Origin: Hysterangium stoloniferum
Lineage: Eukaryota; Basidiomycota; Agaricomycetes; Hysterangiales; Hysterangiaceae
Direction: 5' to 3'
Assembly (NCBI GenBank): GCA_015178975.1
Contig: WHVD01000029.1
Location: 248,001-312,000 of the forward strand
Length of the DNA: 64,000 nt
Shown here in pieces: positions 8,459 through 46,790 of the stretch. The translations under genes and the position numbers were made by a program. Below the pieces are notes generated by a model. It ran no database searches. It had not been told where the DNA came from and was given only the letters and a program-made list of their open reading frames with translations. Position 1 is the stretch's first letter. Each line of letters opens with the position of its first letter.

Positions 8459-8586
8459 TGATAAAAGTGTAGATAATGAATGGCCAGACTGGGGATTGAA
8501 CCCAGGGCTTCTGCATATATAGCAGGGGTGTTAACCATTACACCACCTGACCCTGGGAAGCACTGCTAGCATTACTCAAACTAACA
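8459..8586 (-). repeat. TRIM 3' LTR
   Basis: 128 bp, almost identical to 8742-8869, which implies recent insertion. Preceded on the plus strand by GGCTA. Confidence 0.88.
8482..8552 (-). ncRNA. tRNA-like unit in TRIM 3' LTR
   Basis: 71 nt. The acceptor arm GGTCAGG pairs with TCTGGCC including G-U pairs, the D stem is GTGT/ACAC, and the T arm is CTGGG-TTCAATC-CCCAG. The A box TGGTGTAATGG and B box GGTTCAATCCC fit the Pol III consensus exactly. The anticodon stem has one mismatch and the loop TATATAT lacks U33, so decoding function is unlikely. It may drive Pol III transcription of the element. Confidence 0.7.
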
Positions 8587-8728
8587 CACTCCCTTAATGC
8601 TAGCACTCAACTATACTATAAGCAGATATAGGTCCTCTCTGGCTCTTTTGTCCAGACTTGTCCACTATACCACACACAAATATAGCTGTTCACTCTACAC
8701 ACAGGAACCATGCCCTATAGCACACAGT

Positions 8729-8741
8729 GGGGCCCATAACC
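8729..8741 (-). promoter_or_regulatory. TRIM primer-binding site
   Basis: The minus strand reads GGTTATGGGCCCC immediately after the LTR end. This is complementary to the anticodon stem-loop of eukaryotic initiator tRNA-Met (GGGCCCAUAACC), the half-tRNA priming mode known for copia. Confidence 0.75.
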
Positions 8742-8869
8742 TGTTAAAAGTGTAGATAATGAATGGCCAGACTGGGGATTGAACCCAGGGCTTCTGCATA
8801 TATAGCAGGGGTGTTAACCATTACACCACCTGACCCTGGGAAGCACTGCTAGCATTACTCAATCTAACA
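8742..8869 (-). repeat. TRIM 5' LTR
   Basis: 128 bp, the second LTR of the element. The minus strand ends TTTTAACA directly before the primer-binding site. Followed on the plus strand by the GGCTA duplication. Confidence 0.88.
8765..8835 (-). ncRNA. tRNA-like unit in TRIM 5' LTR
   Basis: Identical in sequence and predicted fold to 8482-8552. In this LTR it sits upstream of the primer site, where a Pol III transcript could cover the element. Confidence 0.7.
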
Positions 8870-25954: not shown

Positions 25955-26174
25955 TGTTAAGGAGTGTGCGCAGAGCTTATTGGAGGGTTTCTGGACAAAC
26001 CCATGGGAAAGCTGGTAGGACTTGGCTTCAGCTTATAGGCTGCACCCTCGCGAGATCATGTCGTCCAATTTCAGACAGGTGGATGGGAATCCTGGGGAGT
26101 CTGGGAGTAGTTGGTGGGTTGAGGGTCAACTGCAGGAATCCCACAGAGGTTGAGGGGTCAGGCAGTGATGGGTC
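25955..26174 (-). repeat. LTR remnant split by Copia-2
   Basis: On the minus strand it ends CTCCTTAACA at 25955 and contains the motif CATAAGCTGAAGCCAAGTCC-like block (26018-26047) also seen at 36067-36096 and 57280-57309. The Copia at 26175-31033 interrupts it. Sequence to the right of that element (31039 to about 31140) is probably the rest of the LTR. Its other end is not resolved. Confidence 0.5.
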
Positions 26175-26486
26175 TGTTGGAATATTAGCGCGACGCGTCT
26201 GTGTCACATGACGGTGTTTAGGTCCACTACGGTCCACAACTGCCGGATGGGTATGCGGTGTCAAAAGTTCTATATATGCTATACTTCTGAGTTAGAAAAG
26301 TTTTCCTCAGTCTTTCGTTTACTTTATACAAGACTGAGGTTAGTAGATATTCTAGAATTAATGCTTCATAACTGATACTGATTTCTTATTAGTATATTGT
26401 TATAGGTTAGCAATTATAGAATATAGTCTTTCGTTTACTTTATACGAGACTGAGTATATTGTTATAGATTACTTCATATCTCAACA
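26175..26486 (+). repeat. Copia-2 5' LTR
   Basis: TGTTGG...TCAACA, 312 bp, containing a repeated CTTTCGTTTACTTTATAC-GAGACTGAG block at two positions. Confidence 0.93.
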
Positions 26487-26501
26487 GGTTATAGGGCCCC
26501 C
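26487..26501 (+). promoter_or_regulatory. Copia-2 primer-binding site
   Basis: GGTTATAGGGCCCCC directly after the 5' LTR. It is like the sites at 8729-8741 and 15485-15498 but has one extra A, so pairing with the initiator tRNA-Met anticodon arm would be bulged. Confidence 0.6.
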
Positions 26502-26526
26502 GTAGCACACTCACTGCAAATTCGAC

Positions 26527-29500
26527 ATGTCAAATTCCCAAAGTACCAACTCCATTGAGAAGGCCTCTTCTCGTCTTTACGACATCCCATATCTAGATGA
26601 CACCAGATCAAATTTCCAGTCATGGAAATATCGCACTCAAACAGTTCTCAAAGTTCGTGGATTGTCGAAAGCTCTCGAAGGCACTGAAACAGATCAGTCA
26701 AAAATCCGGGAAGCTAGAGCCCAGATTGTACTGACCTTGAAAGATGAACCTTTAAATGGAATCATCGGCCTCGAGTCTGCTAAGGAGGTGTGGGAGAAGT
26801 TATGTGCTCGATATGAAGGAAAAGGGACACAAAAAGTAGCTTACCTCATTGGTGAACTATTCCGAAGTAGCCTTGTGGACTCAGAAGCACTCGAACCACA
26901 GATGAATAAAATGCGGACTACTGCCAGATCACTCAGAGCACTTGGAAACGAGATAAAAGACAACCTTATTGCCATTGCAATCATCCTATCACTTCCCCCT
27001 TCCTACTCGACTCTCCAGACCATCCTTATGTCACTCAAAGATCAGAAGACTGAAGATGTTATCGCAAAAATCCTTGCCGAAGAATCTCGCTGAAAAGAAT
27101 CAGCCACACAAGCGGCATTTCTAGCAAAATTCTGGATCAATGCAGGAAAATCTAAAGATACATCAGCTTCTGGGAAAGAGAAGAAGAAGAAAAAGGAGTA
27201 CAAGAAATGTGATAATTGTGGAAAGAAGCATCCTGGCGAATGCCGAAAACCCAAAAATGATTCAAAAGATGATAAGACTGACAAACCAAAGATTCCTGAA
27301 GCCACAGCCAAAATCGCACAAACGGCAGTATCCATAAGCCAGCCGATCCAACTCTTCATGGCTAGTGAACGATCCATAAATCACAATATCCAACAGAAAT
27401 GGATAGTTGACTCTGGTGCATCAGCTGCCATGAGCTCACACCGTGAATGGTTTGTCACTTACCGAAAACTTGAAGAACCCATAAAAGTCTGGTTGGGTGA
27501 TAACAGCTACATACTCGCTGTAGGAGAAGGCTCAGTAAAACTCGAACTATCAATTGGGAATCAGAAAATCACCGGCATTGTACAACAAGTCCTACATGTA
27601 CCAGAATTGCATGGAAATCTTCTATCTGTGTCCAATCTCACATGAAATGGACTTCAGGTTGCTTTTGAAGCGAATCAAATGTGTCGCATCTATAACGAGC
27701 AAAATCAGCTTGTTGGAGAGGCACACCTGGAAGGAAACATATACATTCTTCATGCCGACGTTGTGCTATCTGAACAAATCCACATCAGTAGGATTATCCC
27801 AGGAAGTGAAATAAAATCACAAGCACTTACCGCAGTTGCTAAGGAGTCGAAGGGTGACATAAAATTGTGGCATCGCCACCTAGGTCACATTAGTGCCAAA
27901 TCCGTCCTCAAAATGATTCGAAAAGGGATGGTCAAAGGAATGTCAATTGTAAAAGGCAAAACAATTGATAACTCACCTTGTGAACCATGTCTCCATGGAA
28001 AGCAAACTCGCAAACCCATTCCGAAGTCCACTGAAAATCGAGAAACAACCATTCTTGCACGAATACATTCAGATATTTGTGGAAAAATGCCAACAAGATC
28101 ACGCACCGGATATGAATACTTCATCACATTTATTGACGATGCAAGCCGAATGCTTGACCTCACATTTCTGAAGGAAAAGTCCGAAGCGCTTGAAAAGTTC
28201 GCCGCATTTGTAGAAAGGGTCGAAGTCGAGACTGGAATGCGAGTTACAAAACTGAGGTCAGATGGTGGTGGCGAATACATCTCCAAGAAGTTTGAGGCAT
28301 ACCTTACTTCAAAGGGCATCAAGCATGAGAAGACAAATGCATATACACCACAAGAAAATGGCGTCTCCGAAAGGATGAACCGCACTCTTGTGGGAAGTGC
28401 AATGTCAATGCTTAAAGATGCCGGGTTGCCCAATTCTTACTGGTCGGATGCTGTTGAATATGCTGGACAAATATACAATGTGGTTTTAATACGAGTTTTA
28501 TCAGATTCAACTCCATATGAAGCCTGGTCTGGAAACTTACCAGATATTAGTCGTTTTCGGATTTTTGGCTGCACCGCATATGTGCTAATCCCGGAAAATA
28601 AACGACGAAAGCTAGATGGGAAGACCATTAAATGCATATTCATCGGTTATGCAAGGGACAAGAAGGCTTACCGTTGTATCGACCGAAGCACTGGTCAGGT
28701 GTATGAAAGTCGCGATGTCGTATTTGTTGAAGACATGGCCAGAACACCTGAAAGAGTCATCATTGAGGTAACCCCAAGCTCAAACGACACAGGAACTGCT
28801 CGAGCAATCACCCCAGTTGAATCTATCGAAAATAACAGTGACATACCAGACTTAATGGAAGTTGAAGATTCAGATGACGAAGGAGACAATGAACTACACG
28901 ATAGTTACTTCAATGAGTCAGATGGTGATCAAGAGGAAAATAGCAGCTCACATACCTCGGAACCCATGCAGTCCTCAACAGTGTCGGAAACCTCACAATC
29001 AACATCCCTACCTGTGGCAAATGAAAACTCTCGACCAGTCCGCACCCGAAAAGCTCCAATACAAGATGATGACAATCGTTATTTTGTTACTTCATATGGA
29101 CCTAAGAATCAAGAGTCAGTGAGTGAAACTCAAGTGAATGTGGTCCAATCAATCATAAATGAACCAGAGACTTACGAAGAAGCAATGTCTCGACCTGATG
29201 CACCTCAATGGAAAGCCGCCTGTGCAGAAGAACTTCTATCATTTGTCAAAACAGAGTTATATGATGAGGTTGAAAGACCCAAAGGCCGCCGTGTTGTGGA
29301 TTGTAAATGGGTTTTTCGACTAAAACGTGGACCAAACGGTGAAATACTTCGATACAAAGCCAGGCTGGTTGCAAAAGGGTTCACTCAAGTTGAAGGGATC
29401 GACTATAATGAAACCTTCGCACCAGTAGTCAAATTTACATCCATTCGAACCCTCCTAGCTTTGGCAGCTGAACTTGATCTAGAATTGCACCAGATGGATG

Positions 29501-30714
29501 TCAAAACAGCTTTTCTCAATGGGAACCTCGAGGAAGAAATATTCATGCACTTACCTCCTGGATTTCGCAAGCCAAATACAGTTTGGAGGCTGAAAAAGGG
29601 CTTATATGGGTTAAAACAAGCTAGTCGAGAATGGTACAAAAAACTACATACCAAATTTGAGGCACTGGGTTTCATTCGTTGCCATTCAGACCATGGGATT
29701 TTCATCAAACATGATCATGACATCCTTGTGATCATTGCTGTATACATTGATGACCTATTGCTGCTGTCAAATTCAATGAGCGCAGTTGAAAAGGTCAAGG
29801 AAGATCTCAAACGGAGGTTTGAAATGACTGACCTAGGTGAAGTACGTTGGATCCTGGGAATGGAAATAACCCGAGATCGCAAAGCCCACACACTCTCTGT
29901 CTCTCAGCGCCGTTATGTGCTTGATATCCTCGAGCGGTTCGGAATGTCGGACTGCAAAGCTGTTATAACACCTATAGAACCAAACATGTCACTGACGAAA
30001 TTGACGGCTCCAGAAATCGAAGCAAAAGCTTACCAGAGTGCAGTTGGATCCTTCATGTATGCCATGATAGGCACTCGCCCAGACCTTGCCTTTGCAGTGG
30101 GCGTGCTCAGCCAACATTGCGCAAATCCTGGAAAGGATCACGAAAAGGCAATTAAACGAGTCTTGAGGTATCTAAAGGGATCATCAGATCTAGAAATCGT
30201 TTTCAAGAGATCTGGAAACACAAAAGTTAGAGGATATGTCGATGCAGACTGGGCAGTGGACAAAAATGATCGCAAATCACTTACTGGGTACATTTTCTTG
30301 CTCGCAGGAGGTTCCATCAGCTGGAGTTTGAAGAAGCAGTCTTCTACTGCTCAGTCCAGTACTGAGGCCGAGTATATGGCTGCGGCACATGCTGGAAAGG
30401 AAGCCCTCTGGCTTAGGTCATTTATGGAAGAACTCGGTTTTATTCAAGAGTCACCGACACCACTCTATGTGGATAACCAATCTGCCATAGCCCTCTCAAA
30501 AAATCCAGAGTCGCATAGTCGAATGAAACACATTGGCGTACGCTATCATTTCATACGCGATCATGTCGAATCTGGTGAAATCGAACTGTTATACACTCCA
30601 ACAGGTGAACAAGTTGCTGATGCACTAACCAAAGGACTCACGAAGATTAAGTTGGATAAGTTCATTGTTGGGATGGGATTAAAAAGAATCGGGAGCGTTG
30701 TGAACGCGCAGTGA
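26527..30714 (+). pseudogene. gag-pol: Copia-2 gag-pol polyprotein with two TGA codons
   Basis: About 1,395 codons in one frame, broken only at 27091-27093 and 27643-27645. Both are TGA between residues where the family has arginine (EES-R-KES and SNLT-R-NGL), consistent with CGA to TGA. Order: UBN2 gag, short zinc knuckle CDNCGKKHPGEC, protease WIVDSGASAAM, integrase zinc region LWHRHLGH...CEPCLHGKQTR, catalytic D/D/E (FIDDAS, RSDGGGEY, PQENGVSERMN), RT with VYIDDLLLL, RNase H with DADWAVDKNDRKS and STEAEYMAA. The two stops probably stop autonomous movement unless they are read through. Confidence 0.93.
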
Positions 30715-30721
30715 GTGAGCG

Positions 30722-31033
30722 TGTTGGAATATTAGCGCGACGCGTCTGTGTCACATGACGGTGTTTAGGTCCACTACGGTCCACAACTGCCGGATGGGTA
30801 TGTGGTGTCAAAAGTTCTATATATGCTATACTTCTGAGTTAGAAAAGTTTTCCTCAGTCTTTCGTTTACTTTATACGAGACTGAGGTTAGTAGATATTCT
30901 AGAATTAATGCTTCATAACTGATACTGATTTCTTATTAGTATATTGTTATAGGTTAGCAATTATAGAATATAGTCTTTTGTTTACTTTATACGAGACTGA
31001 GTATATTGTTATAGATTACTTCGTATCTCAACA
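30722..31033 (+). repeat. Copia-2 3' LTR
   Basis: 312 bp, paired with 26175-26486 and followed by the GGGTC duplication. Confidence 0.93.
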
Positions 31034-31148
31034 GGGTCAGAGGTTGAGTGATAGATAGGTCAGAGCCTGTGGGCTCCGACAAGGTAAATAGTGGTGTTTC
31101 AAAGAGAGGAATAGAGTGGAAAATGTACTGAGATTACTGGTATAGACT

Positions 31149-31310
31149 TGTCACAACTGTCACAAGTCACAATATTATTCAACAACTCTTCGACTCATCA
31201 AATTCAACTCAACAAACCCAAACATTATTTGACAACATTGAATCTCTTTTGACATGTCTCATTTCGACACTTCTTTGACAAATACTTCAGTTTTCTGTCC
31301 TTAACAGTAC
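31149..31310 (+). repeat. Gypsy 5' LTR
   Basis: Starts TGTCACAACTGTCACAAG and shares over 150 bp with 39327-39490. The inner boundary is unresolved. Confidence 0.7.
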
Positions 31311-31407: not shown

Positions 31408-33357
31408 ATGTCTTTAATTTGAGAACCCGAAGAAGTTCGAGAACTTGAAGAAATTCAAAAAGAGCCCATCTTGCCAATTCAAGAAGAATCTGAATCTCCT
31501 TTAATGCCTTTGCCTGAATCTCTGCCTCCTGAACCTGTTATGTCTGATGATGAAACAATGTTACGACATTTCAGAGATGTGCTCAGAAAAGTATTGAAGG
31601 ACCAAATGTCTTTGAAGGAGCCTGAAATCACAGTGAATAAGCCCGAAGAGTTTACTGGAGAAGAACCTTCAATGTTAAAAATTTTATTGCTCAATGTGAA
31701 ATGGTTTTTCAATCTCGACCAAAATCATTTGAATCTGATCATTTGAAAATTACAATGGTAACTTCATATTTCCGGAAAATGGCTCAAGAGTGGTGGCAAC
31801 CTTTTCTATTAAATCCTCCAATTCCGCCTCCATCTTTTCTTGTGGATTATCTTGATTTTCTAGATGAATTATATGCTCAATTTGGAGAAATTGATACAGA
31901 AGGAGAAGCTGAAGAAAAACTCGACAATCTTTGAATGAAAGCTCATCATCATGTTGCGAAGTATTCAATTCAATTTACAAGTCTCACTGCTCAAACTTGA
32001 TATGACAAATTTGCTTTACGACAACGATTTTGTAAAAGACTTCCAAATTGAATTAAGGATGAAATAGTGAAGCTTCAAGTTCAGCCTGAAAGTTTTGCCG
32101 AATTGTGAACGGCAGCCCTTCAACTCAATTCTTACTATTGGATGTAAGAAAATGAACAACAACGTGAAACAGAATCAAGTTCAACTTCATGAAGATTTGA
32201 AAGAAGACAACCAATGACACCTTTGACTTATCCTTCGACATCACGAACACTTTCAACTTCAAAACCGACAAATTTGACTTCAAGAACATTTAGGCCTTCG
32301 ACTCAAGCAAAACCATCTTTGACAATTTTAGGACCTGATGGACGATTACTTCCTACTGAATGAGACAGAAGATTTAAAGAAGAGTTATGTATATTATATG
32401 GAGAAAAAGGCCATTCAGTGAGGGATTACCCAAAAAGAAAAACTCGTCAAATTACAAAAGGACGAATTGTTGAAGTTCAGGATTTGACAGCTCAATCTGA
32501 TCAGTCGAATCAAACATTGAATGTTAAATCAGAAAATTGAAAAGGGATACTCTTCAGGCATGTGAAGAGTATCGAAGAAAACTCGATCATGCCAAAAAGA
32601 TTCCTATGTAATATTATGAGTGGTAACAATTTCTGATTCTTTAATTATCAAACTTAAATTGAAGAAAATTCCGAAAATAAAAGCATTAATTGATTCAGGA
32701 TCTAGTCACATTTTTATGGACAAAACATTTGCATGACAAAATAATCTACCTTTCGACCAATTGAAAAATTCATTATCATTAAAATTAATCAAAGGATCAA
32801 CTCCCACATCAGGACAAATTACATATATGACTACGTTACAAGTTTATTTTCCATCCAGGCAAACTCAAGAATTACAATTCTTTTTAACCAATCTCGACTC
32901 GTCTTGTCAAGTGGTATTAGGACTCAACTGGCTGAAGCAACACAATCCTGTGATTGACTGGCGATCTGGCCATATATCGTTTGAACCTACTTCGACACCT
33001 TCAACAAATCTGAATCCGATTCAACTGTCAATTGAAACGTTATTGGAAGAGAAGCATGCTTTGACCTCAGCAAGTCATTCATCTACATCTGAGAAAATCT
33101 GTGAAGAATCGAAACCCAAGACTATTAATCCGAATATCAATATAGTCAATCAGAAGACATTCCTACGAGCTGCGAAAGCAAAATATTCTCAAACCTTTGT
33201 AGTCTTTATTCGTGATGAATCTTTCAAGACTTGTAAGGCCTCTGGTGCAAAAACTACAACTTTGACTTCATTTGACATACCGAATGTTCCAACCAAATAT
33301 TCCGATTTCTCAGACGTCTTCGACAAAAAAGAAGCTGAAGCTTTACCTCAACATTGA
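31408..33357 (+). pseudogene. gag: Gypsy gag and protease
   Basis: Gag core reads NKPEEFTGEEPSMLK, then QEWWQPFLLNP and LYAQFGEIDTEGEAEEKLDNL. A knuckle-like segment ILYGEKGHS follows, where the usual first cysteines are weak. The protease near 32690 reads ALIDSGSSHIFM and VVLGLNWLKQHNPVIDW. Many TGA codons sit where arginine would fit, such as LDNL-R-MKAHHH and LPN-R-IKDE. There is no intact frame longer than 200 codons. Confidence 0.85.
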
Positions 33358-36133: not shown

Positions 36134-37611
36134 TTTTCAGTTCTTAACAGATATACTCAAAGCTCAAAAAGAAGATCAATTTACTCTCGACAAAATTCGA
36201 CAGATTTCTGACAGTACCGAAGAAGATTGGCAAAAGAACGAACAAGACTTTTTATGTTTCCAAAACAGAATTTACGTTCCCAACTATCAAAATATTTGAC
36301 TTCAAATTCTTCAATTAAGACACGATCATATTACCGCAGGCCATTTGGGTCAAATGAAAATGTATCGAACAATATATTGAGATTTCTTTTGGCCACAACT
36401 CTGACAAGATATTCAAGATTTTATTTGATCATGTGTAACATGTACAAAATCAAAACTCCATGACATTGACGCATTGGATTACTTAAGCAACTTCTGATCC
36501 CTCTTTGACCATGGCATTCAATCTCGATGGATTTTATCGAACAATTACTGACCTTGAATGGTTACAACTCAATACTCGTAATTGTTGATCGACTTTCAAA
36601 CAAGCAATATTTATTCCAACTCATACTACGATCAATGCTCCCGAACTCGGTCGACTTTTCATACTACATGTCTTTTCAAAACATGGAGTCCCAAGTCATG
36701 TAACTTCTGATTGAGGATCCAAATTTGTGTCGCATTTCTTTCAATCTCTCAGAACAGCACTCGACATGAAACTTCATTTTACTTTGGGATACCATCCTGA
36801 AGGTGATGGACAAACCGAATGAGTCAATCAAACTCTTGAACAATATTTACGAATATATTCCAATTATCAACAAGACAATTGTGCCAAATTACTCCCTTTA
36901 GCTGAGTTCACTTACAACAATACACCTTCCGAAACAACTGGTGAAACACCATTTTTGCTAATAAAGGTTATCATCCATTGTTAGAAATTCACCCTGAAAA
37001 AGATCTAGCTTCAAAAAGATCTAGCTTCTGCTCTAGCTCACGATTATACAACAGATCTCGAAGCTCTACATAAACATCTTAAATCAAATATCCAGAAAGC
37101 ACAAATATGTTATCAAAAATATTCTGACATACATCAAAAAGAGTCATTTGACTTCCTGATCCATTCTCAAGTCTTTGTATGATCCGACTTTATTCAAATG
37201 ACTTGACCATTGAAAAAATTATTGGAAACATTATTAGGCCCATTCGAAATCATTGCTCAACCAGGATCTCATTCATACACATTAAAACTTCCCAATCATC
37301 TCAAAGGAATTCACCCTGTCTTTCATGTTTCAATGTTAGAACCATTTCATCCCAATACTTTCCCAAATCGAAAACAACCTCCTCCTCCACCAATTTATGT
37401 TGAAGAAGAACCCAAATATGAAATTTGAGAAATTTTGGATTCAAAATTCGATAAAAGATATAAAGATTCATTACAGTATTTAGTTGCTTGGTTAGGTTAT
37501 GAAGGAACAGATGAAGAAACTTTGTGGTTAGGATCTCAAGATCTCGAACATGGTTTCGACCTTATTGAAGAATTTCATCAAAAATATCCAAATCTTCCAC
37601 GACATTGAAAA
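36134..37611 (+). pseudogene. pol: Gypsy integrase with chromodomain
   Basis: Integrase zinc region HDHITAGHLGQMKMYRTI followed by CVTCTKSK. The core has VPSHVTSD, LGYHPEGDGQTE and LLPLAEFTYNN-like blocks. A GPFEIIAQPGSHSYTLKLP segment and HPVFHVSML follow, typical of chromoviruses. The chromodomain is near 37414-37606 (EILDSKFDKRYKDSLQYLVA, then WLGYEGTDEETLW). Frequent TGA codons and one duplicated segment near 37005-37030 (AAAAAGATCTAGCTTC). Confidence 0.88.
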
Positions 37612-37620
37612 TTTCACTTA

Positions 37621-38322
37621 CAGCACTTTGCATTACGTAAGGTGTGTGCTAGATTTGTGTGGAAATCTTGCTGAAAGTTGCGAACCTCGTAGCTTGCTCA
37701 ATAATTGACCAATTGTCTTGTAACTTCATATACATATTTTACTACTATATATCTAGTATATTATGATGTTATAACTCCAAAATTTGACCTACAGCATGTT
37801 TCCCAAAATTGCAGTCTATTTGAGCTTCCGAACCAATTTATGAGCCAACAAATGTATCACTCCCAATGAGCTTGTAATATGTTGTTTTATATGTATCTAG
37901 GTAGTAAAAAATGACAGCGCCTGGCTTTTTCTGTCTAAATACCAGCTGCAAACCTGTATGAGGGTAGTTGTATGCATTTACTTGGCAACCTCACTCACAT
38001 TAGCTCTGACCGCAAAAGCCAGGTGCTGTCATTTGTTACTATCTATATACATGTAAAACAACATATTACAAGCTCATTGGGAGTGACAGATCTGTTGGCT
38101 CATGAATTGGTTTGCAAGCTCAAATGGACTGCAATTTTGGAAAACATGCTGTAAGTCAAATTCTGGAGTTATAACATTATAATATACTAGATATATAGTA
38201 TTAGAATACGTATATGAAGTTACAAGACAATTGGTCAATTATTGAGCAAGCTACGAGGTTCGCAACTTTCAGCAATATTTCCATGCAAATCTAGCACATG
38301 CCTTACGTAATGCAAAGTGCTG
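37621..38322. mobile_element. foldback / long-TIR MITE with TA target duplication
   Basis: The left arm starts CAGCACTTTGCATTACGTAA and the right arm ends with its reverse complement. Arms of about 315 bp (37621 to about 37936, and about 38006 to 38322) surround a 70-bp centre. TA dinucleotides flank it (37619-37620, 38323-38324). There is no transposase. CAG ends with TA duplication fit a Tc1/mariner-pogo-type origin. The arms differ mostly by point changes, with some CG/TG differences. Confidence 0.8.
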
Positions 38323-38574
38323 TAACTATCTTTCGACACTTATTTTGACAAAATTCGACAAAATTGAAAAAAATCATCAAAATGTCAAAACATCAATTAA
38401 ATCAAAATTTCAAATATCTATAAATATTCAATTCCCTCCTCTCTCAACTCTGCCATCTTATCAAACCATGCCCCTCTAAATCTCCCACTATTAATGCTAA
38501 TATCAGTTTCCTTGCTAAAATCCCCACTTTTGACCAATTTTTTCGACAAAATCGAAAAATCATCCCTGAATGCT

Positions 38575-39248
38575 TTAACCACCAATTAAATCCTCCATTC
38601 TCTTTTCCATTTTCGACATTCTTTCGCTCATCAATTTCATTTCTCTCTCCAAGTGATTATCTGATCGAATTTCCAACCTTCTTAACCATCTAGAAAAATT
38701 TGACAACTTCGACATGATGTTGCGATGAATATTCTTCCTTTGTCCAAGTTTGTGAATTCCAGGACTGCCATTTTCAATCTCATCATCTGACTCTTCAATT
38801 ACATTTCGACTTTTCTTTCAGTTTCAATGTGGTTTTCTGGCTGGCCTATTTATGGTCCAATAACAGGCCTGATGCAATCGATTGCAGCAATCACAGTTTG
38901 ATGATGTGTTTGTTTTCTTGCACACGAAATTTGTATTAAAACACATTGTGCAACTGAAAAAACAAATTAGCAAAATTGGAAAAAATTCAACAAATCGAAA
39001 AATTACAAATTTTCCGATTTTGCTTCAAATTCCCATTGCATTCCAATTCCTTTACGAGTTGCCTTATTGAACGGTTCTTCGCAATCTGCTAAACACTTTT
39101 TGGGAATTTCTTCTAAAAAATAACTAATTAACTAATTTAAAGAAATCCCAGAAATCAACTTACCAATCACATCAACAACTATATCTTTCTCTTCGAAACC
39201 CAAGAATTTGGATTCTGATTTGAATTGATCACCTTCTATGTCAGACAT
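38575..39248 (-). pseudogene. antisense spliced cysteine-rich gene inside the Gypsy element
   Basis: It lies on the strand opposite gag-pol, between the chromodomain and 3' LTR. The ATG at 39248 opens MSDIEGDQFKSESKFLG. Intron 1 is GTAAGT...TTTTTTAG and intron 2 is GTAATT...TTTTTCAG. Both are about 50-60 bp and join in frame. Exon 2 holds KKCLADCEEP. Exon 3 has the cysteine cluster CTMCFNTNFVC...CDCCNRLHQAC, an acidic patch (VIEESDDE) and a charged helix likely to be a coiled coil (LEREMKLMSERMSKMEKRM), ending at 38575. Two TGA codons (38818-38826) fall in an R-rich stretch and look like CGA to TGA. I infer a metal-binding, possibly nucleic-acid-binding accessory protein of about 190 residues, now inactivated. 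No family name is assigned. Confidence 0.65.
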
Positions 39249-39326
39249 TGATTGATGAAAATGAAAATAGATAATGAAAATTTTTCAAACTCCGACCTCA
39301 TGGGCTCAGTCACAAGGGAAGGATAC

Positions 39327-39640
39327 TGTCACAACTGTCACAAGTCACAATATTGTCACAAACATTCAAAGGTAATATTCAACAACTCTTCAACTCATTG
39401 AATTCGACTTGATAAACCCAAACATTATTCAACAACATCGAATCACTTTTGACATGTCTCATTTCGGCATCACGAATGATTTCATTATTAGATTATAATA
39501 TAGTCATAATGATATGAAGAAAAACATAAAAGGGCCACAAAAGGAGTGAGGGAAGTCAGTCAAAATATCTGTAAATTAGTGATATTAATAATCTAACTTG
39601 TCGTAACTTCTTTGACAAATACTTCTGTGAGTTCTCGTGA
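39327..39640 (+). repeat. Gypsy 3' LTR (disrupted)
   Basis: TGTCACAACTGTCACAAG start, matching 31149. About 120 bp of unrelated sequence separates the ACATGTCTCATTTCG and TCTTTGACAAATACTTC blocks, which are contiguous in the 5' LTR. Confidence 0.6.
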
Positions 39641-43599: not shown

Positions 43600-45535
43600 A
43601 GTGGGAACAGGATGGAGAGAGAAGGAAACAGTGCACGCACCAACTGGAGGAAAGAGAGCAGTCTGATCAGTGCAGGATGGAGAGAGCAGGAAAGGGTATA
43701 TGCACCAACTGGAGCAAAGAGAGGAGCCCATTCAGAGGAGGGCAAAGAAAGAAGGAAAGGGTACATGCACAAACTGGAGGAAAGAGAGAAGAGGTCAATC
43801 AGAGGAGGGGGAAGAGAGAACAAAAGGGTAAATGCATGAACTGCAGGAAAGAGAGATCCTGATCAGAGGAAGATGGAGAGAGAAAGAAAGGGTACATGCA
43901 CAGCCTGGAGAAAAGAGAGGGGAGCCTGATCAGAGAAGGATGAGGAGAAGCAAAGGGTACATGTACTGCCTGGAGGAAAGAGAGAAAGGGCCAATCAAAG
44001 GGGGACGAAAAGAGAAGGAATGGGTACACACACATCCTTGAGGAAAGAGAAAGAAGGCCAGTCAGAGGATGAAGAGAGAGGAAAGGGGCACACACACAAA
44101 CTGGAGGAAAGAGGGAGGAGACAGGTCAGAAGAAGACAAAGAGAGAAGGAAAGGGTACATGAACATCCTGGAGGAAAGAGAAAGTGGGCCAATCAGAAGA
44201 GGATGACGGGAGAAGGAAAGGGTACATGAACTGACTGGAGGTAAGAGAGGAGGCCAGTAGGATGAAGAGAGAAGAAAGGGACACACACACATCCTAGAGG
44301 AAAGAGGAGGCCAATCAGAGGATGAAGAGAGAAGGAAACGGTACACACACCTCCTGGAGGAAAGAGAGAGGACGAAGGGAGAAGGAAACAGTACATGCAC
44401 TGGCTGGAGGAAAGAGAAAAGAGGCCAATTAGAGGAGGACAAATAGAGAAGGAAATGGTACACGCACCTCCTGAGAGAGGAGGCTGATCAGAGGACAAAG
44501 GGAGAAAGACACGGTACACCCACCAGCTGTAAGGGCGACTCTCTAGACCACACTGACTCGCACTGTGACTGAGCTGGGGTGCTAGCAGAGGAAATCTGAA
44601 GTGAGTTTTATACCTATCTAATTACATACATGTAGAATACAGTCTTACTTACCTAGCAGAGGAAATCCGAAGAGAAAAGTCTAAGGAATCCTCAGCTAGT
44701 GTGTGACTAACTAAAGGTGCAGCGGAGTTTGAAAATGTGATAACAGCAAGTGCCCTCACCCTTTATTTATGAAACTATATTAAGGAAAGTCAGGAGTGAA
44801 ATTGGAAAACTTAAGATTGTCCCCTGACACCAGCTGGAGGAAAGAGAGGAGGACAATCAGAGGAGGACAAAGGGAGAAAGAAATAGTACACACACTGGCT
44901 GGAGGAAAGAGAGGAGGCCAATTAGAGGAGGACAAAGAGAGAAGGAAATGGCACACCTCCTGGAGGAAAGAGAGAGGAGGACAGAGGGAGAAGGAGCAGT
45001 ACACGCACCGGCTGGAGGAAAGAGAGAGGAGGACAAAGGGAGGGAGCAGTACACGCACCGGCTGGAGGAAAGAGAGGGGGCCGATCAGAAGAGGACAGAG
45101 AGAGGGAAAGGGAACACACACCGGCTGGAGGAAAGAGAGGGGGCCAATCAGAAGAGGACAGAGAGAGAGGGAAATGGAATGTGCACCGGCTGCAGGAAAG
45201 AGAGAGGAGGCAAATCAGTGCAGGACAGAGGAAGAAGGAAATGGTAGATGCACCGGCTGGAGGAAAGAGAGAGGGTCCCAATGAGAGGAGGATGGACAGA
45301 GAAGGAAACAGTACACACACCTGGAGGAAAGAGAGGAGGATGATCAGAGGACAAAGAGAGAGGAAATGGTACATGCACCAGCTGGACAAAAGAGAGAAGA
45401 GGTCAATCAGAGGAGGACGGAAAGAGAAGGAAACATTACACACACTCGCTGGAGGAAAGAGAGAGGAGGCGGATTAGCACAGGATGGAGGGAGAAGGAAA
45501 GAGTACACACATCACCTGGAGGAAAGAGAGGGTGC
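43600..45535. repeat. purine-rich satellite, unit about 60-75 bp
   Basis: More than 20 diverged units of the form CTGGAGGAAAGAGAG, then CCAATCAGAGGAGGA, then AGAGAGAAGGAAA, then GGTACACACAC. It is strongly purine-biased on the plus strand. Open frames here are a by-product of composition. It is interrupted by a 298-bp insertion at 44530-44827. Confidence 0.85.
44530..44827. mobile_element. 298-bp MITE-like insertion in the satellite
   Basis: Flanked by direct copies of CACCAGCTG (44521-44529, 44828-44836). Its ends are loosely inverted (TAAGGGCGAC and TCAGGG-GAC). Inside, AGCAGAGGAAATC is repeated about 70 bp apart. Non-coding. The 8-9 bp duplication and -AGGG- ends are compatible with hAT. 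Confidence 0.65.
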
Positions 45536-45540
45536 ACTGC

Positions 45541-45868
45541 ACCGTGAATGGGAGAGGGTGCACCGTGAATGGGAGAGGGTGCACCGTGAATGGGAGAGGG
45601 TGCACCGTGAATGGGAGAGGGTGCACCGTGAATGGGAGAGGGTGCACCGTGAATGGGAGAGGGTGCACCGTGAATGGGAGAGGGTGCACCGTGAATGGGA
45701 GAGGGTGCACCGTGAATGGGAGAGGGTGCACCGTGAATGGGAGAGGGTGCACCGTGAATGGGAGAGGGTGCACCGTGAATGGGAGAGGGTGCACCGTGAA
45801 TGGGAGAGGGTGCACCATGAATGGGAGAGGGTGCACCGTGAATGGGAGAGGGTGCACAGTGGATGGGA
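45541..45868. repeat. 21-bp minisatellite A, about 15 copies
   Basis: Near-perfect units GTGCACCGTGAATGGGAGAG plus G. The unit is a multiple of three with no stops in several frames, giving artefactual heptapeptide ORFs on both strands. Confidence 0.92.
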
Positions 45869-45959
45869 GGGGGTGGATGGGTACACGGTGGATAGGTGCC
45901 GGTGGATGGGTGTGTGGTGGATGGGTGCAGGTGCGTGGTGGATGGGAGCAGGTGTGCGA

Positions 45960-46543
45960 TGGATGGGTGCATGGTAGGAGCAGGTGCATGGTGGATGGGA
46001 CAGGTGCGTGGTGGATGGGAGCAGGTGCGTGGTGGATGGGAGCAGGTGCGTGGTGGATGGGAGCAGGTGCGTGGTGGATGGGAGCAGGTGCGTGGTGGAT
46101 GGGAGCAGGTGTGCGGTGGATGGGAGCAGGTGCACTGTGGATGGGAGCAGGTGCACAGTGGATGGGAGCAGGTGCACAGTGGATGGGAGCAGGTGCGCAG
46201 TGGATGGGAGCAGGTGCACGGTGGATGGGAGCAGGTGCACGGTGGATGGGAGCAGGTGCGCAGTGGATGGGAGCAGGTGCACGGTGGATGGGAGCAGGTG
46301 CGCAGTGGATGGGAGCAGGTGCACGGTGGATGGGAGCAGGTGCGCAGTGGATGGGAGCAGGTGCACGGTGGATGGGAGCAGGTGCGCAGTGGATGGCAGC
46401 AGGTGCACGGTGGATGGGAGCAGGTGCACGGTGGATGGGAGCAGGTGCACGGTGGATGGGAGCAGGTGCACGGTGGATGGGAGCAGGTGCACGGTGGATG
46501 GGAGCAGGTGCACGGTGGATGGGAGCAGGTGCACAGTGGATGG
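45960..46543. repeat. 21-bp minisatellite B, about 26 copies
   Basis: Units GGTGCACGGTGGATGGGAGC plus A, related to array A. From about 46190 to 46400, GCGCAGTGG and GCACGGTGG versions alternate, giving a 42-bp higher-order repeat. Not a gene despite 300-codon open frames on both strands. Confidence 0.92.
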
Positions 46544-46790
46544 GATTTATTGTATCCCATTTTGATTTACTGTATCTTAGTTTGATTTATTGTATTTTAT
46601 TTTGATGTACTGTATTTTATTTTGATTTATTGTATTTTATTTTTATTTATTATATTGTTTTTGGATTCATTGAATTTGAATTTTATTTATTTTATTTTAT
46701 TTTCAATTATTATTTTTTCTTCTTGATTTATCACATTTTATTTTCATTTATTGTATTTTATTTGAATTATTATGATTTTATTGAGATTTT
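46544..46790. repeat. AT-rich tandem repeat, right block
   Basis: About 20-bp units TTTTGATTTATTGTATTTTA, the counterpart of 43380-43590. Confidence 0.75.

What the first reader, a model, noticed from the sequence alone, without database searches (positions are those of the whole stretch)
38575..39248. Spliced antisense cysteine-rich gene hidden in a chromodomain Gypsy
Opposite the Gypsy coding strand, just before the 3' LTR, three exons join in frame through two fungal-type introns. They encode a protein with a cysteine cluster, an acidic patch and a coiled-coil-like tail. An intron-bearing antisense gene in a retroelement cannot pass through its own spliced transcript, so the introns persist only because retrotransposition uses the opposite strand. 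This suggests a regulated accessory protein, perhaps acting on integration or silencing.
Basis: partly seen in the sequence, partly recalled or inferred. Interest (0 to 1): 0.87.

Follow-up and report, generated by a model that had tools for sequence, protein, structure and literature searches.

The report
Antisense spliced gene in fungal retrotransposon
A fungal "jumping gene" family carries, on its opposite strand, an extra intron-containing gene for a probable zinc-binding, coiled-coil protein that natural selection preserved while the element multiplied, a layout reminiscent of the antisense regulator HBZ of the leukaemia virus HTLV-1; what the protein does is not yet known.

Summary
The gene is real; the window's copy is broken. 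Three antisense exons with two ~50-nt introns lie between a Gypsy chromodomain and its 3' LTR. This copy has two in-frame TGAs and a 2-base deletion that made the finding's false end; the family's stop corresponds to 38418. In 80 copies, variants seen once look neutral in this frame (omega 0.97), while variants shared by 6 or more copies are constrained (0.21, no stops). Four control frames give 2.2-4.0, the mirror frame 0.34. Of the 85 best integrase hits, 79 have the gene within 2 kb. A younger sister family has its own antisense gene there, also two introns, constrained (dN/dS 0.21), six cysteines plus long helix. Both cysteine spacings fit fungal Zn2Cys6 clusters (rule recalled), but no profile or structure search confirms it. 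No protein relative was found. [quoted passage not shown]), spliced ones in HTLV. Best reading: an HBZ-like regulator made from the 3' LTR; function inferred.

The parts
31149..31291 (+). 5' LTR, internally shortened relative to the 3' LTR
   Evidence: LTR start found exactly at 31149 and 39327; blastn matches of the two LTRs
32737..33357 (+). piece of pol, weak match to retroviral aspartyl protease (RVP_2, E 0.0021, below the curated cut-off)
37207..37425 (+). integrase C-terminal SH3-like domain (SH3_Tf2-1, E 3.4e-15)
37429..37605 (+). chromodomain at the end of pol (PF00385, E 1.2e-6)
37618..38325 (.). palindromic insert (arms 37618-37935 and 38008-38325) between pol and the antisense gene in this copy
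   Evidence: window self-comparison; in most other copies the two genes end about 113 bp apart
39164..39248 (-). antisense exon 1 with ATG at 39248
   Evidence: ATG kept in 66 of 80 copies
39113..39163 (-). antisense intron 1, 51 nt
   Evidence: GT in 67 and AG in 65 of 80 copies
39007..39112 (-). antisense exon 2
38954..39006 (-). antisense intron 2, 53 nt
   Evidence: GT in 52 (AT in 23) and AG in 76 of 80 copies
38418..38953 (-). antisense exon 3 to the family's stop codon (this copy: two TGA codons at 38826 and 38820, and a 2-base deletion near 38580)
38863..38952 (-). cysteine cluster CX2CX6CX8CX2CX6C with conserved His
38528..38748 (-). approximate stretch of the predicted long helix / coiled coil
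   Evidence: AF2 model of exon 3, residues 70-144; coordinates converted by hand
39309..39361 (-). array of five TTGTGAC motifs over the LTR edge, upstream of the antisense ATG
39327..39628 (+). 3' LTR (at least to 39628), presumed source of the antisense transcript
   Evidence: promoter role inferred

Best explanation
Shown: a chromodomain Ty3/Gypsy family carries an intron-bearing antisense gene, tail-to-tail with pol and with its start codon 79 nt from the 3' LTR edge. Its protein sequence was kept by purifying selection while the family multiplied, whereas variants private to one copy look neutral. Inferred: an antisense transcript starts in or near the 3' LTR, is spliced in the nucleus and makes a protein of about 242 aa. 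Its six-cysteine cluster and the basic stretch after it would bind zinc and DNA, and its coiled coil would make it a dimer, in the manner of Zn2Cys6 factors. It would be a nuclear, self-encoded regulator, most likely of the element's own LTR transcription, as HTLV HBZ and APH proteins are. The introns would persist because only the opposite strand is reverse-transcribed.
For: Selection in the predicted frame. Splice sites, start and cysteines conserved. Fixed position: integrase or chromodomain on the opposite strand downstream in 81 of 100 and LTR start upstream in 74 of 100 fetched loci; gene within 2 kb of 79 of the 85 best integrase hits. A sister family with an antisense gene of similar build in the same place. 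Cysteine spacing that fits the Zn2Cys6 rule (rule recalled), then a long helix. HTLV precedent: spliced antisense transcripts from the 3' LTR encode nuclear proteins that restrain sense transcription (PMC10186651, passages).
Against: No transcript data. No Pfam match to any zinc-cluster family; the nearest cysteine-type hits are weak and of PHD type. The cysteine part is not modelled with confidence, and Foldseek found no PDB match. There is no basic run between cysteines 2 and 3, as recalled for GAL4-type clusters. The mechanism rests on architecture and analogy. Introns are about as conserved as exon 3, so an RNA-level role may also exist.
Confidence: 0.5

Rival explanations
1. Integration accessory: the protein enters the nucleus and helps import or tether the element's cDNA or integrase, working with the chromodomain to choose target sites.
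For: Selection; found in a chromodomain family and in its chromodomain-bearing sister; nuclear localisation reported for the Grande antisense protein (PMC7264820, passage).
Against: No evidence of an interaction with integrase; separate transcription and splicing suit regulation better than a structural part (inference).
Confidence: 0.22
2. Anti-silencing factor: the protein counters host methylation, heterochromatin or RNA interference directed at the element.
For: Many copies differ at CpG/TpG/CpA sites and carry TGA codons, a sign of host targeting; zinc plus coiled-coil architecture would allow chromatin binding (inference).
Against: Copies decay despite the gene; CpG is not depleted overall in the region (observed/expected 1.17); nothing ties the protein to silencing.
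Confidence: 0.14
3. The antisense RNA itself matters (double-stranded RNA or interference with sense transcription) and the protein is secondary.
For: Introns are about as conserved at non-CpG sites (pi 0.150 and 0.139) as exon 3 (0.131), and less variable than codon third positions (0.239).
Against: Codon-level constraint: shared variants have omega 0.21 and no stops, so the protein is selected.
Confidence: 0.08
4. Captured host gene carried as a passenger.
For: It has introns, like a host gene, and no similarity to other retroelement proteins was found.
Against: Present beside 79 of the 85 best integrase hits; 94 of 100 fetched loci have the LTR or the integrase end beside it; selection within the family; no host relative found.
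Confidence: 0.04
5. Chance: fortuitous open stretches joined by chance splice-like sites.
For: The window copy taken alone has two in-frame stops and a frameshift.
Against: Selection tests, 17 stop-free exon-3 copies, conserved splice sites and the sister family.
Confidence: 0.02

Closest known systems
brtn, antisense gene of Boty-like Gypsy elements (Botrytis cinerea, Sclerotinia sclerotiorum; Zhao et al. 2011, paper not held; known here from passages of PMC7264820, PMC8365987 and PMC4227169)
   Same: Fungal Gypsy element with a chromodomain (PMC4227169) and an extra gene antisense to gag-pol between pol and the 3' LTR
   Different: Sequence not available here, so homology, introns and cysteines could not be compared; the host here is probably a basidiomycete
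Plant antisense aORFs: Grande gene23, RIRE2, Retand TRP28, PvRetro13
   Same: Antisense, between pol and 3' LTR, present in most copies of a family; Grande's antisense transcript has its own promoter and its protein is nuclear; TRP28 is predicted to bind DNA (PMC7264820 and PMC11963269, passages)
   Different: No TRP28 (PF04195) match in Pfam here; the word intron does not occur in the main text of either review; here there are two introns and a cysteine cluster
HTLV-1 HBZ and the APH proteins of HTLV-2, -3 and -4
   Same: Antisense, expressed from the 3' LTR, spliced; HBZ has a dimerising coiled-coil (bZIP) and is nuclear (PMC10186651, passages)
   Different: A retrovirus, and bZIP rather than a cysteine cluster; no sequence relationship tested or claimed
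Zn2Cys6 fungal transcription factors (spacing rule recalled)
   Same: CX2CX6CX8CX2CX6C (window family) and CX2CX6CX10CX2CX6C (sister family), followed by a long helix
   Different: No profile match; no basic run between cysteines 2 and 3; an additional conserved His and YW

Membership tests
Antisense additional ORF of LTR retrotransposons (aORF-3R) | Coding strand opposite to gag-pol | tested here: met
Antisense additional ORF of LTR retrotransposons (aORF-3R) | Located between pol and the 3' LTR | tested here: met
   Of 100 loci, integrase end downstream in 81, LTR start upstream in 74, both in 61, neither in 6
Antisense additional ORF of LTR retrotransposons (aORF-3R) | Present in most copies of the family | tested here: met
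   79 of the 85 best integrase-tail hits (74% identity or more; 150 of 2530 candidates were scored) have it within 2 kb
Antisense additional ORF of LTR retrotransposons (aORF-3R) | Transcribed in antisense | not testable with these tools
   No RNA data
brtn family | Sequence similarity to brtn | not testable with these tools
   The paper is not held and no brtn sequence was available
Zn2Cys6 (Zn_clus, PF00172) | CX2CX6CX5-12CX2CX6-8C spacing (recalled) | tested here: met
   Six Cys each kept in 73-76 of 78-80 copies; in the sister, five Cys in 14 of 14 and one in 13 of 14 copies
Zn2Cys6 (Zn_clus, PF00172) | Significant profile match | tested here: not met
   No PF00172 hit for the proteins at E up to 10, nor among the 25 families shown of the 63 matched
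Zn2Cys6 (Zn_clus, PF00172) | Binuclear zinc fold | tested here: inconclusive
   Low-confidence cysteine part; Foldseek 0 matches for the window family's model; the sister's model was not searched
PHD finger | C4HC3 ligand set with a second CX2C pair | tested here: not met
   No CX2C follows the His/Cys part within exon 3; PHD_2 matched only 2 of 29 members, best E 0.00083, and BRD1 PHD at E 0.64 in PDB
Homology of the window-family and sister antisense proteins | Significant profile similarity or shared intron phases | tested here: inconclusive
   hhalign probability 4.3% and 0.7%, though the Cys residues align; intron phases 1 and 2 against 0 and 0 (from the coordinates)

The most novel reading that the evidence does not exclude
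Chromodomain Gypsy elements of mushroom-forming fungi carry an old, general class of spliced antisense genes encoding cysteine-cluster/coiled-coil regulators: a retrotransposon counterpart of HBZ that binds motifs at the LTR edge (such as the TTGTGAC array) and switches the element between sense and antisense programmes.
Probability: 0.25. Interest if true: 0.82.

Novelty: new variant of a known kind. Interest (0 to 1): 0.62.

Why it matters
It shows by codon-level selection, not only by an open frame, that an LTR retrotransposon has kept an intron-bearing gene on its antisense strand, and that a related family in the same genome carries one of similar build. That makes two open questions testable: what antisense genes of LTR elements do, and whether HBZ-like self-regulation extends to retrotransposons. 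The host genome holds many stop-free copies of the sister gene.

Tried and rejected
Considered and rejected: a chance frame; coding on the Gypsy-sense strand (each of the 17 stop-free exon-3 copies has stops in all three sense frames); PHD finger (no second CX2C pair; weak matches); passenger host gene.

Led nowhere: Pfam on the antisense proteins (nothing convincing); PDB sequence search (best E 0.36, CREB leucine zipper); Foldseek 0 matches, so VIA-align had nothing to compare; a DNA pattern in viral contigs, the sister exon 3 in viral contigs and prokaryote genomes, protein database searches.

Limits: of the 80 close copies, 40 were chosen by DNA similarity to the window and 40 by similarity of exon 3 to copy L036, so preserved copies are over-represented. 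The 17 copies of the pairwise dN/dS test were picked for open frames; the shared-against-singleton test used all 80. Singletons include misaligned stretches of frameshifted copies; they show 31 stops where 15.3 were expected. Only 11 of 80 copies have an open spliced frame, 8 of them with ATG and all four splice sites. The sister's splice sites were placed by eye in L109, helped by its alignment with L110; an upstream in-frame ATG leaves its start uncertain.

Full report
WHAT IS THERE. The finding lies just inside the 3' LTR of a Ty3/Gypsy element on the + strand (LTR starts at 31149 and 39327). The end of pol carries an SH3-like integrase tail (Pfam E 3.4e-15) and a chromodomain (PF00385, E 1.2e-6). 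In copies without the deletion the frame runs on by about 53 residues; the counterpart in the window ends at 38418.

THE GENE IN OTHER COPIES. The host genome (111 Mb, 554 contigs, unnamed) holds many copies. The DNA search scored 40 of 133 candidates; besides the window itself they are 82-86% identical. The exon-3 protein search scored 150 of 185 candidates and gave 155 matches, with listed identities from 39 to 100%. I fetched the 40 copies of the DNA search, 40 more from the exon-3 search and 20 diverged or fragmentary ones. In the first 40, the ATG is kept in 38, intron-1 GT and AG in 37 each, intron-2 AG in 40 and GT in 25. In the 80: ATG 66, intron 1 GT 67 and AG 65, intron 2 GT 52 (AT in 23) and AG 76. 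Several copies read TTC|GTAA at the intron-2 donor, so the donor G can lie in a CpG and be lost by CpG decay (alignment; inference). Intron 1 is 51 nt in 32 copies, 52 in 24 and 53 in 6. Exon lengths stay in phase with the reference copy in 69 (exon 1), 63 (exon 2) and 53 (exon 3) of 80, against 37 and 49 of 80 for introns 1 and 2. Eleven of 80 copies have an open spliced frame, 8 of them with ATG and all four splice sites. Several diverged copies, at roughly 40-60% amino-acid identity over exon 3, still show recognisable exons 1 and 2, the cysteine box and the C-terminus; others match only in exon 3.

SELECTION. First test: all 80 copies, leaving out every column that takes part in a CpG in any copy. 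Variants seen once split N:S 243:43 with 31 stops (omega 0.97); variants in two copies 126:35 with 12 stops; in three to five copies 101:35 with 6 stops; in six or more 55:73 with no stop (omega 0.21; singletons against six-or-more, Fisher p 1.2e-17). In the other five frames the six-or-more variants give 2.22, 2.47, 2.17, 0.34 and 4.04; the 0.34 belongs to an opposite-strand frame, most simply explained by its third positions coinciding with those of the gene (explanation inferred). Second test: pairwise Nei-Gojobori dN/dS in exon 3 of 17 stop-free copies: median 0.16, range 0.04-0.30, below 1 in 136 of 136 pairs; shifted frames 1.49 and 0.87. A result that complicates the picture: at non-CpG sites the introns (pi 0.150 and 0.139) vary about as little as exon 3 (0.131) and exon 2 (0.147), less than exon 1 (0.212) and codon third positions (0.239), so an RNA-level or sense-strand constraint may be superimposed.

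PLACE IN THE ELEMENT. In 100 fetched loci the integrase end or chromodomain lies downstream on the opposite strand in 81 and the LTR start upstream in 74 (both 61, neither 6). The ends of the two genes are usually about 113 bp apart. As a check from the other side, of the 85 best integrase-tail hits (74% identity or more, not chosen for the antisense gene), 79 have an antisense exon-3 hit within 2 kb and 5 have none within 5 kb (from the lists). The antisense ATG is 79 nt from the LTR edge, so its promoter most likely lies in the 3' LTR (inference). TTGTGAC motifs span this edge, three or more in 61 of 75 copies examined. They overlap the LTR terminus, which is constrained for other reasons.

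A SISTER FAMILY. The integrase search also returned 65 hits at 60-63% identity from a better-preserved family with frames up to 1302 aa. Two fetched copies (L109, L110, 90% identical) carry an antisense gene behind the chromodomain, with two introns placed by eye (phases 0 and 0, against 1 and 2 in the window family), a different N-terminus and a motif CX2CX6CX10CX2CX6C in exon 3. Its exon 3 was matched 150 times (150 of 905 candidates scored; 66-100% identity; about three quarters of the rows without a stop). Fourteen copies give median dN/dS 0.21, range 0.12-0.37, below 1 in 91 of 91 pairs, against 1.33 and 1.26 in shifted frames. Homology with the window family's protein is not proven: hhalign probability 4.3% and 0.7%, although the cysteines align. 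It could be an old relative or a parallel acquisition.

THE PROTEIN. Copy L036 encodes 242 aa. After a short N-terminal part come CX2CX6CX8CX2CX6C with a conserved His and YW (each of the six Cys kept in 73-76 of 78-80 copies, His in 76 of 80; mean residue retention in this box 0.86 against 0.82 overall), a basic stretch, an acidic patch, a long predicted helix (exon-3 residues 70-144, pLDDT above 90 only over about residues 101-130) and a conserved C-terminus. The model as a whole is weak (mean pLDDT 61, pTM 0.30; the cysteine part about 50), and so is the sister's (mean 52; helix 84-160 mostly at 60-88). The cysteine spacing fits the Zn2Cys6 rule (recalled), but Pfam shows no such domain. 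No relative was found in the protein database: 0 of 2319 candidates at E 1e-3 and 0 of 5210 at E 10. That database does hold fungal proteins: a control with the window's Copia pol returned 767 proteins, with Sparassis crispa on top and Sphaerobolus stellatus and others among the named ones. This also suggests that the host is an agaricomycete (inference; the classification of those genera is recalled). Genes inside transposons are often left unannotated, so the absence is weak evidence.

HOW IT PROBABLY WORKS. Shown: a selected, intron-bearing antisense gene in a fixed place. Inferred: transcription from the 3' LTR, splicing in the nucleus, zinc and DNA binding, dimerisation, and regulation of the element's own LTR. 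The nearest worked-out model is HTLV: HBZ and APH are antisense, come from the 3' LTR, have spliced transcripts, and HBZ and APH-2 are nuclear (PMC10186651, passages). Works like is the claim here; membership is not.

KNOWN OR NEW. Antisense extra genes between pol and the 3' LTR are a known kind: Grande, RIRE2, Retand and PvRetro13 in plants, and brtn of Boty in Botrytis and Sclerotinia (PMC7264820, passages and section 5; PMC11963269, PMC8365987 and PMC4227169, passages; Zhao 2011 not held). What appears new is the combination of introns, codon-level selection against a neutral background, a cysteine-cluster/coiled-coil architecture, and recurrence in two families of one fungus. I saw no report of this in paper searches (listings; passages of seven papers). 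The library lacks most subscription papers, so this is not proof that none exists.

Noticed in passing
window 26162-31035: A Copia element with LTRs 26162-26488 and 30708-31035 that are 97.6% identical and a 1022-aa pol frame, 27646-30714, matching RVT_2 and rve; nearest named relatives are fungal.
   Followed up: partly
window 35428 to about 36145: Insert inside the Gypsy pol that begins TGTTACGACC, like the LTR start of the sister family, with a 31-bp match (93.5%) to L109; possibly a solo LTR of a related element. Its right end is a guess.
   Followed up: partly
window 37618-38325: Palindromic stretch with arms of about 318 nt, 91.8% complementary, between the pol stop and the antisense gene; probably an inserted inverted-repeat element.
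   Followed up: no
window 45478-46605: Tandem repeat array of about 21 bp per unit, read as CTVNGRG and then WMGAGAQ/R units; strong GC skew around it.
   Followed up: no
window 8459-8869: Duplicated tRNA-Ile(TAT) gene, 8481-8552 and 8764-8835, within a 128-bp repeat 98.4% identical.
   Followed up: no
antisense introns 39163-39113 and 39006-38954 and their counterparts in 80 copies: Introns are nearly as conserved as coding sequence and less variable than codon third positions; unexplained, perhaps a second signal on the sense or antisense RNA.
   Followed up: no
L019, upstream of the antisense ATG: One copy has 11 TTGTGAC motifs at the LTR edge, where most of the 75 copies examined have 3-5.
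   Followed up: no
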